Part shown: in pieces, positions 1 to 5,900 of the stretch
Position numbering within the stretch: the first letter of the stretch is position 1
How the letters are laid out: every line of letters starts with the position of its first letter
From: a virus
DNA: 20,013 nt
Reading direction: 5' to 3' (one strand)
Virus record (IMG/VR): IMGVR_UViG_3300021373_003125
Location: 1 to 20,013 of that record
Position numbers and translations under genes: made by a program
Notes under the pieces: generated by a model
What the model saw: the letters and a program-made list of their open reading frames with translations, nothing else
What the model was told of the DNA's origin: nothing
The model's database searches: none

Positions 1-3000
1 TCGTCAAATAGGCTTCGCAGTTTTCTGGCGATTTGCTTAAAGTATGAGTCTTTCGCGTTCGAGGCTTTCTTTTCAAAATCGTATACGTAAGCGGCTGTCT
101 GATCCGAATACCATTCTTCGAAACCATGGCGATCAAGGGTGTAGGAAGAAGGAACATCTCCCCCTTTACTCTTCACGTTTTCTAAGTACGCACCCCAAAG
201 CATTTTCTTAAGGGCGGGGTTTTGTTGTATCTTTTCAAACTCTTGCACGAACAGGACATGTCCCAGCTCGTGTACCAGCGTGGTACCTATCTCTGCATCG
301 CGGGCTGTCTCACTGAGTTTTGGATCTAGATCTTGGATAACAACGAGGGCCACGTCACCGACAGGGATTAAGCGGGCTTTCACCTGCTTCCCTGATTCCA
401 CGCGGCCTTCTAGGCGATCGATAGTTTCTTCAAGATCTGCTTTGTAAACATGGTCAAACTCACCCAGCTTCGACTTGAGGTCTGAAAGAGTCATAACTCT
501 TACAGGTGTCGTGAGGCCCAACAAGGATATAGCCCGACCTAAGAGACGGTTCGTAACAGTACCTAAACCGGCGGATGATTTAATCGAAACTGGTGTTTCA
601 ATTCCTTCTGGTTTGGCCGGACCCCGAGGCCCAACCACCGATCGAGGTTGTGGCTTTACACCGCCGCCTTCTTGCTTAGCTTTCCTGGAACCTGCACCCG
701 GCTTTGCCTCAACGCCTGCTTCAACGACAAGGCGGCTATATAAACCTGGTAATAGATACGAGCCCTCTTCATAGGCTGGACTCCCATCTTCATCGACCTC
801 AGTGAACGTATCTTCTCGTGGGCCAGGAGATGACGCCTCTTGTTGAGAACGGAATTCGTCTATTGCTTCACCCATCGGGGCAGTTTCACCTGTACGACGT
901 AACCGGCCTGGCGTTGTTCTGGCAGGTATGCTCTCTCTTTGAACCCTAATTAACCTGTATTTACGGCTCATGCCGTTGACAGGGAGCTCCTCAATAAGGA
1001 AATGGATGCTCGCTTCTAGCCCGGTCGACAACCTCTTCTGGTTTTTAATCTTCGTAACTAACTGCTGCAAACCTTCGATGGATAGATCGTTCGCATTATC
1101 ACGGTAGTTTTGTTCGACGTAAGGTGGCAGTCCGCTGAAACCCAAAAGGGTATTGACTAGACGAGTGTGGTAGCTCTTTTGTTTAGGAGTGAGGTTCGTG
1201 AGATACTTGCGTCCGACAAAGAACGTGTTCTTCTGGTCACGGATTTTGGCATCTGTTTCCGCTCTTATGTTGTCTGCCCGTTCTGAGTCAAAAGCCCCCA
1301 GCTTCTTAGCTTCTTCGATGGGCCGTGTCATATTCAAGGCATCTAGCTCTGCGGTTGCGACTTCGCGATCGTCCATAGCATCTGGGTCAAAAAGAGTTTC
1401 GTTGTAATCGCGGTAATTTTGTTTAGCAGCAGCCTGTTTTTCTCGAAGATCAGAATCTGGGAAGGCGCGATCAACACGCGCATCAATTTCTTCAATCGGC
1501 AAACCTTCAAACTCAAGGTTTTTTCTGAGCTTGTCCTTACCGTGGTTGTGTATGTCGATTACACGCTGTTGTGCTCTTCTAATACCTTCTTCTAGTTTTT
1601 GTTCTTTAATATCACTAATCGCGGAATCTGTAGGTTTCGCATCTGGGACTAATGGTCTTCCAGAACTATCGGTTCCAAACAAGAGATCGTAGTAGGTATA
1701 ACCCTCGCCAGTTTCAGGGTTACCGACAAACTCAGTCTTTAGAACCTGTATAAGCTTTCCAGCGCTACCATATAGCTCCGGCGATGGTAGTAAGGTGTTC
1801 ACCTCTGTTTCATATTGAAGCTGGGTAATTTCACCATCGACGAAAGACTGGTATACGGCATCCAGTTCCATCACGTTCAAGCGGGCTAAGTCACCACTAA
1901 GTGCGCCGGGCAACGCTGCTGCCAAATCAATTTTAATGAGCTCGCTGCCAATAGGCACGACAAGTATCTTTCCGCCCCGGCTGTAGATCTCTTTGAGCCC
2001 AGTGATTAAACCTTGTTTTAGAGCTTGAGCACTGGTCAGGCCCTCGCCAACCAAAGCCTGATCAGTTGCGATGTTGACCTTGCGGCCTTCGTCAGCAAGC
2101 ACACCCAGACCTGTATTGTTCGCGTAACCAGTCATCCTCCGCTCACGCTTGGCCGGGTCAGCTTTTTCAGCCTGGTTTGCTAGATCCTGTGGGATCACAA
2201 ATTCGAGGTTAGACTTATATGCACCTATCCGTGTATCGAATTTTCTAACCTTAGAAGTAAAGCTGTCGACTAAGTTCTCGCCGGCCACATCAAAATCGTT
2301 GGGGTCAGATTCCTGGTACTCCATAATATCGAGGTGGTTTGGCGTCTCAGAAAAACGGATAGAGTAACTAACAGGCTTATCACGCGCTGATTCAACGAGT
2401 TGCCTGAATCTTTTCATCATTGATTCAGACATAAACTCGGCAAAATCATCGAGATTATATGAGGGGTCACGGTCGAACTCTAAGGCATTATTGGCTTCCC
2501 GCTGTTCGACAGGGCCTGTCTCCATCTCATCAAGTATTCTTTTCGCCACACGATAGTTAGCGTTGAATTCTACTTTCCGGTTGGGCGGTAACTCGGAATC
2601 ACGCATTTTATACGTGGCATCATCAACGCCGTTTGCCCTCGTAGCGATGCGAATATCTGGGTCATCCAGAGATTGGGGAGTAGAGGGTTGTTGTTCGGTT
2701 GGAGGTTCAAAGCCTATCGCGACTTCTTCTTCTACAGATTCCTGAAACGGGCTTCCTGGAAGTGGGGGCTCACTTAATGGTGCGTCATCTCTTTCAGGTC
2801 GGGTTATGGATGGACCCTGTGAAGTTCGGGCCAAGCGTAATGCACGGTCCTTTTTCCCCTCGGAATCAACCGCGTTAAGAACCTTAATCAGTTCCGCTTT
2901 GGGGAAGTTAGCTTGGTAATATTGCGCCTCTGCAATATAGGCTTCTATCCCGGCAATAAGGGTGCGGAAACCTTCAGGGGCATTCTCCTTCTGCTCTAAC

Positions 3001-5900: not shown

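What the first reader, a model, noticed from the sequence alone, without database searches (positions are those of the whole stretch)
1..5900. Giant phage protein joining a P5-like domain, hydrophobic segments and a zincin metallopeptidase
Seen: one open frame of at least 1966 codons, HELGH at residues 1877-1881 with a downstream [10 protein letters not shown] segment, a P5-like first 120 residues, Gly-zipper-like hydrophobic stretches and Pro-Ala linkers. Known: giant 'polyvalent' phage proteins carry metallopeptidase and other effector domains and enter the cell with DNA. Inference: the peptidase may process the giant protein or cut a host target after injection.
Basis: partly seen in the sequence, partly recalled or inferred. 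Interest (0 to 1): 0.75.

Follow-up and report, generated by a model that had tools for sequence, protein, structure and literature searches.

The report
Phage injection protein with built-in metalloprotease
This is the giant protein that a short-tailed phage most likely packs in its head and injects with its DNA; it carries a cell-wall-cutting domain at the front and a zinc-protease-like domain near the back that is kept in every complete relative checked, so the protease is probably a working part of the injection machine rather than an occasional add-on.

Summary
The reading frame (window 5900-3, minus strand) is real: 1966 codons, complete at the N-terminus, cut by the contig edge about 800 codons before its expected end. 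A 74-78% identical relative (L003) shows a 2573-residue protein, so the peptidase is internal, not C-terminal. By gene order it is the third and largest ejection (pilot) protein of a podovirus related to Pseudomonas KPP25/LUZ24 types. Residues 4-120 are an Enc34-type (PHA02564) murein hydrolase, also at the front of Kayfunavirus gp16. Residues 208-557 are a conserved core module. The HELGH region is predicted with high confidence (pLDDT 93.7) to fold like a small zincin; H, E, G, H, E, W, D of HExGH...EEWxxD are invariant in 57 rows. Searching with the C-terminal module instead of the peptidase, 59 of 59 complete relatives still carry the zincin: it is part of the inherited core (median dN/dS 0.04). 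N-terminal enzymes vary. Phages tf and BroderSalsa lack the zincin. Polyvalent virion proteins with zincins are known (Iyer 2017; N4 vRNAP), so this is a new variant of a known kind. Most likely role: processing of itself or partner ejection proteins; a host target remains possible. Activity, substrate and virion presence are not shown.

The parts
3..5900 (-). Giant ejection-type virion protein, 1966 codons, N-terminus complete, C-terminal ~800 codons missing (contig edge)
   Evidence: full-length relative L003 2573 aa
5541..5891 (-). Residues 4-120: PHA02564/Enc34-type murein hydrolase domain (predicted catalytic E112, Y77; F66 where Enc34 has W79)
   Evidence: phrog_873 E=1e-34; 7q47 Enc34 endolysin E=1.8e-5 and 9vvp Gp29 E=1e-18; residues
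4230..5279 (-). Residues 208-557: conserved Gly/Ala-rich core module ('H module')
   Evidence: found in all relatives whose N-terminal part is in the contig, also in phages tf and BroderSalsa
3630..3839 (-). Residues 688-757: Pro/Ala linker 1
3096..3284 (-). Residues 873-935: Pro/Ala/Thr linker 2
3..602 (-). Residues 1767-1966: zincin-like metallopeptidase domain
   Evidence: AlphaFold2 pLDDT 93.7; VIA-align zincins; alignment A6
258..272 (-). HELGH (1877-1881): predicted zinc ligands H1877, H1881 and general base E1878
102..122 (-). FEEWYSD (1927-1933): E1929 is the predicted third zinc ligand; W1930 and D1933 invariant
5910..8048 (-). 712-aa gp15-position ejection protein (predicted from position)
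   Evidence: homologue directly upstream in 19 of 72 relatives, not detected in the rest
8058..8669 (-). 203-aa gp14-position ejection protein (predicted)
   Evidence: phrog_8003 virion structural protein, weak; homologue in 71 loci
8669..9304 (-). 211-aa protein of the same conserved cassette
   Evidence: 71 loci
11542..12690 (-). Major capsid protein
   Evidence: PF13252 E=2e-46; 52% identical to KPP25-type phages
13965..16085 (-). P22-type portal protein
   Evidence: PF16510 E=1e-125
16078..17775 (-). Large terminase
   Evidence: PF03237 E=1e-18

Best explanation
The protein is the large pilot (ejection) protein of a KPP25/LUZ24-type podovirus. It is most likely packed in the head, leaves through the tail before or with the DNA, opens the peptidoglycan with its N-terminal murein hydrolase, and uses its conserved core (module at 208-557 plus the missing ~800-residue C-terminal part) to help form the DNA path across the envelope. 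The embedded zincin is an active zinc peptidase (inferred) whose substrate is the ejection machine itself: it cuts the giant protein, or a neighbouring ejection protein, during head maturation or after ejection, so that the front (murein hydrolase) and back parts can work apart. Shown: gene order, domain content, invariant active-site residues, selection, coinheritance; predicted by model: the zincin fold. Inferred: packaging, ejection, catalysis, substrate.
For: Gene order terminase-portal-capsid-tail tube-(211)-(203)-(712)-giant, all on one strand, the same cassette in about 70 relatives, and the gp16 place in T7. N-terminal 200 residues match Kayfunavirus gp16 at 33% and solved Gp29 (9vvp). 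Zincin: pLDDT 93.7; highest VIA-align rows are largely zincins (1oz9 Z 6.3, M61, MMP-11, collagenase H); H, E, G, H, E, W, D invariant in 57 rows. Search with the C-terminal module, not with the peptidase: 59/59 complete relatives carry it. Zincin-to-C-end spacing nearly fixed (median 826, CV 0.07) while N-side length varies (CV 0.23); zincin distances track the C module about as well as the H module does (r 0.72 vs 0.74). Median dN/dS 0.037. A part kept this constantly beside exchangeable N-terminal enzymes (PHA02564, SLT, SNase or none) fits a machine function better than a host-specific effector.
Against: No virion proteomics, peptidase assay or cleavage site is available. Krylovvirus tf and BroderSalsa have both core modules but no HExxH, so the peptidase is not needed for every such ejection machine. 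N4 vRNAP keeps a HExxH domain (10/10 here) yet is packaged uncleaved (stated in PMC5512222). The Z-scores are modest (6.3 at best) and Foldseek itself gave no PDB hit below E=1.
Confidence: 0.5

Rival explanations
1. The zincin is an injected effector: it is delivered with the protein and cuts a host protein (defence, envelope or regulator) early in infection.
For: Polyvalent proteins carry such effectors and this role is proposed for some of their zincins (PMC5512222); N4 vRNAP shows that a giant protein with a HExxH domain is delivered into the cell (PMC12633501).
Against: It is present in 59/59 complete relatives and coinherited with the core, unlike the N-terminal enzymes; effectors against hosts would be expected to vary with host. 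The hosts of most relatives are unknown, so this is a weak argument.
Confidence: 0.25
2. The zincin is a prohead-maturation protease acting in trans on scaffold or other head proteins before DNA packaging.
For: No separate head protease was recognised between portal and capsid genes in the window; the domain would be inside the prohead.
Against: P22-type portal belongs to a group in which scaffold is released rather than cleaved (own knowledge); gp16-type proteins have few copies (T7 record note).
Confidence: 0.12
3. The fold is kept only as a structural or zinc-binding element of the ejection protein without peptidase activity.
For: N4 vRNAP is packaged uncleaved despite its HExxH (PMC5512222); the N4 structure paper describes the motif and my search of its text found no reported peptidase activity (PMC12633501).
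Against: Not only the predicted zinc ligands but also the general base E is invariant in all rows; in a purely structural zinc site this E would be expected to drift.
Confidence: 0.12

Closest known systems
Virion structural giant protein of Pseudomonas KPP25-type phages (Kochitakasuvirus; CRPAP1904 2107 aa)
   Same: Capsid (52%) and portal (41%) closest; H module and C module shared; an HExxH (HESMH) in the middle of the giant protein
   Different: Not detected by the zincin profile; no N-terminal murein hydrolase recognised
Aeromonas phage phiA008 gp66 (2050 aa) and a Motiliproteus coralliicola prophage protein (1904 aa)
   Same: Same zincin (HELGH..F[DE]EWFAD), H module, C module
   Different: phiA008 has an SNase domain (PF00565) at the N-terminus; the Motiliproteus protein looks SNase-like by eye only (no Pfam hit)
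Krylovvirus tf gp51 / LUZ24-PaP3 type virion protein (about 1020 aa)
   Same: H and C modules (tf tested), comparable gene position
   Different: No zincin, no murein hydrolase: a smaller version of the same core
Internal virion protein D (gp16) of Kayfunavirus; Gp29 (PDB 9vvp)
   Same: N-terminal ~200 residues and gene position
   Different: No zincin; C-terminal similarity not significant
N4 virion RNA polymerase (Schitoviridae gp50)
   Same: Third gene of an ejection cassette, giant, HExxH domain followed by a long helical C-terminal part (PMC12633501)
   Different: No homology of any of the three modules by profile-profile comparison; payload is an RNA polymerase
Polyvalent proteins with zincin-like MPTase (PMC5512222)
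   Same: Giant phage protein with zincin plus another enzyme; HExxxH variants occur in both (HEALGH)
   Different: None of the displayed Pfam hits is the polyvalent MPTase; here the zincin is a fixed part of an ejection-protein core
Enc34 endolysin catalytic domain (PDB 7q47, PHA02564)
   Same: N-terminal domain homologous, catalytic E and Y kept
   Different: Part of a virion-type giant protein, not a lysis enzyme; W replaced by F

Membership tests
Podoviral large ejection protein (gp16 / internal virion protein D) | Last and largest gene of the internal-protein cassette, downstream of capsid and tail-tube genes | tested here: met
Podoviral large ejection protein (gp16 / internal virion protein D) | N-terminal murein-degrading domain and adjoining region as in gp16 | tested here: met
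   residues 6-212 aligned to Kayfunavirus gp16, 33-34%
Podoviral large ejection protein (gp16 / internal virion protein D) | C-terminal part homologous to T7 gp16 | tested here: inconclusive
   No significant match of H or C profile to T7 or Hafnia gp16; single-sequence targets, little power; the window's own C-terminus is missing
Podoviral large ejection protein (gp16 / internal virion protein D) | Present in the virion and ejected | not testable with these tools
   Only annotations of relatives as virion structural proteins
Zincin metallopeptidase (gluzincin-like) | HExxH helix plus downstream glutamate zinc ligand | tested here: met
   H111, E112, H115, E163, D167 invariant in 57 rows and 55 rows
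Zincin metallopeptidase (gluzincin-like) | Zincin fold | tested here: met
   By prediction only: model pLDDT 93.7, helix and strands followed by the active helix; top VIA-align rows mostly zincins at modest Z 4-6.3; Foldseek alone not confident
Zincin metallopeptidase (gluzincin-like) | Zinc binding and proteolysis | not testable with these tools
   needs a biochemical assay
Polyvalent protein (Iyer 2017) | Several unrelated enzymatic domains in one phage-encoded giant polypeptide | tested here: met
   murein hydrolase plus zincin
Polyvalent protein (Iyer 2017) | Delivered into the host with DNA | not testable with these tools
   inferred from gene position only
Polyvalent protein (Iyer 2017) | Membership in one of the 12 described MPTase clades or the Pfam polyvalent models | tested here: inconclusive
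   Pfam hits of the 55 members are to M78, M32, M48 and DUFs; only 25 of 55 families were displayed
N4-type virion RNA polymerase | Homologous N, zincin or C region | tested here: not met
   hhalign probability at most about 2% for every segment
PHA02564 / Enc34-type murein hydrolase | Sequence similarity and catalytic Glu, Tyr and aromatic residue | tested here: met
   7q47 E=1.8e-5; E112, Y77, F66

The most novel reading that the evidence does not exclude
A widespread, largely uncharacterised group of podoviruses has a DNA-ejection machine whose giant pilot protein carries an obligate built-in zinc protease that cuts the machine itself during or after ejection; N4-type phages reached the same layout independently with an RNA polymerase-HExxH protein in the same gene place.
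Probability: 0.3. Interest if true: 0.8.

Novelty: new variant of a known kind. Interest (0 to 1): 0.55.

Why it matters
Zincins in giant phage proteins were noted in 2017, but what they cut is open. Here the peptidase is invariant in a large family that also includes a cultured phage (Aeromonas phiA008) and a prophage (Motiliproteus), next to natural versions of the same core without it (tf, BroderSalsa), so its role in ejection can be tested by comparison and by a single active-site change in a phage growing on a non-pathogenic laboratory host.

Tried and rejected
Homology to N4 virion RNA polymerase, suggested by weak PHROG hits (phrog_2206, E=4e-6): not supported by HMM search and profile-profile comparison with ten diverse vRNAPs. 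Significant Pfam hits for the window protein itself: none credible (the SARG and BPA hits, fall in low-complexity or Ala/Gly-rich parts). C module fold: AlphaFold2 pLDDT 78, all helical, no convincing PDB match; Foldseek listed membrane transporters at E>0.4, taken as noise. Extending the window's own contig: the record ends there. The CRP-810 split of the giant into gp35/gp34 looked like a natural pre-cleaved form, but the junction appears to be a short tandem duplication with a frameshift (seen by eye in the peptide ends), so it was not used. Counts for portal, terminase and scaffold repeat the capsid result exactly (a stale intermediate file in my script) and are not used. Literature searches for this family found nothing beyond polyvalent proteins and N4, in an open-access library only.

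Full report
Observation. The window (a 20,013-base virus record) encodes on its minus strand a run terminase - portal - scaffold - capsid - tail-tube genes - small genes - 211 aa - 203 aa - 712 aa - giant frame. Pfam and PHROGs confirm large terminase, P22-type portal, capsid and structural proteins. The giant frame runs from 5900 to 3, 1966 codons, open at the contig edge.

Full length. A relative in IMG/VR (L003; 78% identical over residues 1-735, 40% over 1077-1965) is complete with 2573 residues. Its peptidase motif is at residue 1681, so about 890 residues follow it. The window protein is therefore cut just after the peptidase, and a C-terminal peptidase is an edge effect. A second contig (L002) is identical over residues 1-721 and is probably the same phage population.

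N-terminal domain. Residues 4-120 match phrog_873 'endolysin' (1e-34), the catalytic domain of Enc34 endolysin (7q47, 1.8e-5) and the N-terminus of Gp29 (9vvp, 1e-18). The match to gp16 of Kayfunavirus extends to residue 212. Enc34 residues proposed as catalytic are Glu131, Trp79 and Tyr95 (PMC8943055); the window has E112, F66 and Y77 at the aligned places.

Core modules. A profile started from residues 205-560 finds the same module in all relatives whose N-terminal part is in the contig, and also in phages tf, BroderSalsa, CRPAP1904 (KPP25 type), phiA008 and a Motiliproteus prophage. A profile of the last ~350 residues (from L003 and phiA008) finds every relative not cut short at its 3' end (74 loci) plus tf, BroderSalsa and Microcystis phage Mae-Yong1326-1. 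These two modules define the family. Only a few hydrophobic stretches reach a transmembrane threshold, so membrane insertion is not shown.

Zincin. The window domain with 54 relatives was modelled at pLDDT 93.7. Foldseek gave no confident PDB match, but VIA-align put mostly zincins at the top (1oz9 Z 6.3 over 118 residues, M61 aminopeptidase, MMP-11, IRAP, collagenase H, further down PPEPs); these Z values are modest and are read together with the motif. The best viral model match covers the domain at TM 0.81. In 57 rows H, E, G, H (HExGH) and E, W, D (EEWxxD) are invariant. One lineage reads HEALGH, the one-residue-longer form that PMC5512222 reports for some polyvalent MPTases. Among Pfam families, members hit M78 (28 of 55), M32 and M48, mostly weakly.

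Bias check. The first relatives were found with patterns from the peptidase motifs, which favours their conservation. I therefore searched with the C-terminal module (393 relatives, best 80 kept, i.e. those nearest L003). Of 69 non-redundant loci, 59 had a complete N-terminus; all 59 carry zincin and H module. The distance from HExGH to the C-terminus is almost constant (776-1080, median 826), whereas the N-terminal side varies from 871 to 2280; pairwise distances of zincin and C module correlate (r=0.72) about as well as H and C do (0.74). Close pairs give a median dN/dS of 0.037 in the zincin (29 pairs, not independent). The zincin is thus part of the inherited core, unlike the N-terminal enzymes: PHA02564, SLT, SNase or none.

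Context and distribution. The cassette (tail tubes, 143, 211 and 203 aa proteins) precedes the giant gene on the same strand in about 70 relatives; the 712-aa neighbour is recognisable in only 19 of 72. In the phage collection portal and capsid are closest to KPP25-type phages, Acidovorax AP1 and phiA008. In 84,980 prokaryote genomes one relative was found, a Motiliproteus prophage, though the single degenerate pattern used limits that search.

Mechanism. By position and domains the protein is the large pilot protein. In T7, gp16 carries the transglycosylase, leaves through the tail and helps to build the periplasmic and inner-membrane conduit (PMC8954989). The zincin could act on the giant itself or its partners, on the host, on head proteins, or be structural. 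Its constancy beside swappable N-terminal enzymes favours the first, at about even odds; smaller core proteins without it (tf, BroderSalsa) show that it is not universally required. N4 vRNAP is the instructive analogue: same gene place, HExxH domain followed by a long helical C-terminal part, HExxH kept in 10/10 vRNAPs, but no detectable homology and packaged uncleaved (PMC5512222).

Verdict. It is a new variant of a known kind: a polyvalent-type, gp16-position ejection protein with a constant zincin, which current Pfam and PHROG models do not recognise in the window sequence.

Noticed in passing
L106 / L081 (same contig), residues 1064 and 2071 of a 2893-aa giant: One relative carries two zincin motifs (HEYGH..IEEWFAD and HEMGH..FEEWFSD), apparently a duplication.
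   Followed up: no
L095:7700-7765 (Roseobacter phage CRP-810, gp35/gp34): The giant protein is split into two frames where a short tandem duplication seems to shift the frame; recent frameshift or sequencing error.
   Followed up: partly
L045, L046, L047, L051, L063, L090: A lineage with HEALGH instead of HExGH, one residue longer between the zinc histidines.
   Followed up: partly
window 19457-19508, 19666-19717, 19983-20006 and 19235-19258, 19516-19539, 19724-19747: Small plus-strand frames upstream of the terminase genes are separated by repeated spacers: a GC-rich hairpin-like block followed by a T-run (terminator-like), then a repeated ribosome-binding-site block.
   Followed up: no
window 18521-19039 (-): 172-aa frame that looks like an HNH-type endonuclease by eye; no Pfam hit.
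   Followed up: no
L012:5725-13050 (Microcystis phage Mae-Yong1326-1): 2441-aa giant with two HExxH motifs (HELGH 954, HEWAH 1329), annotated peptidoglycan transglycosylase.
   Followed up: no
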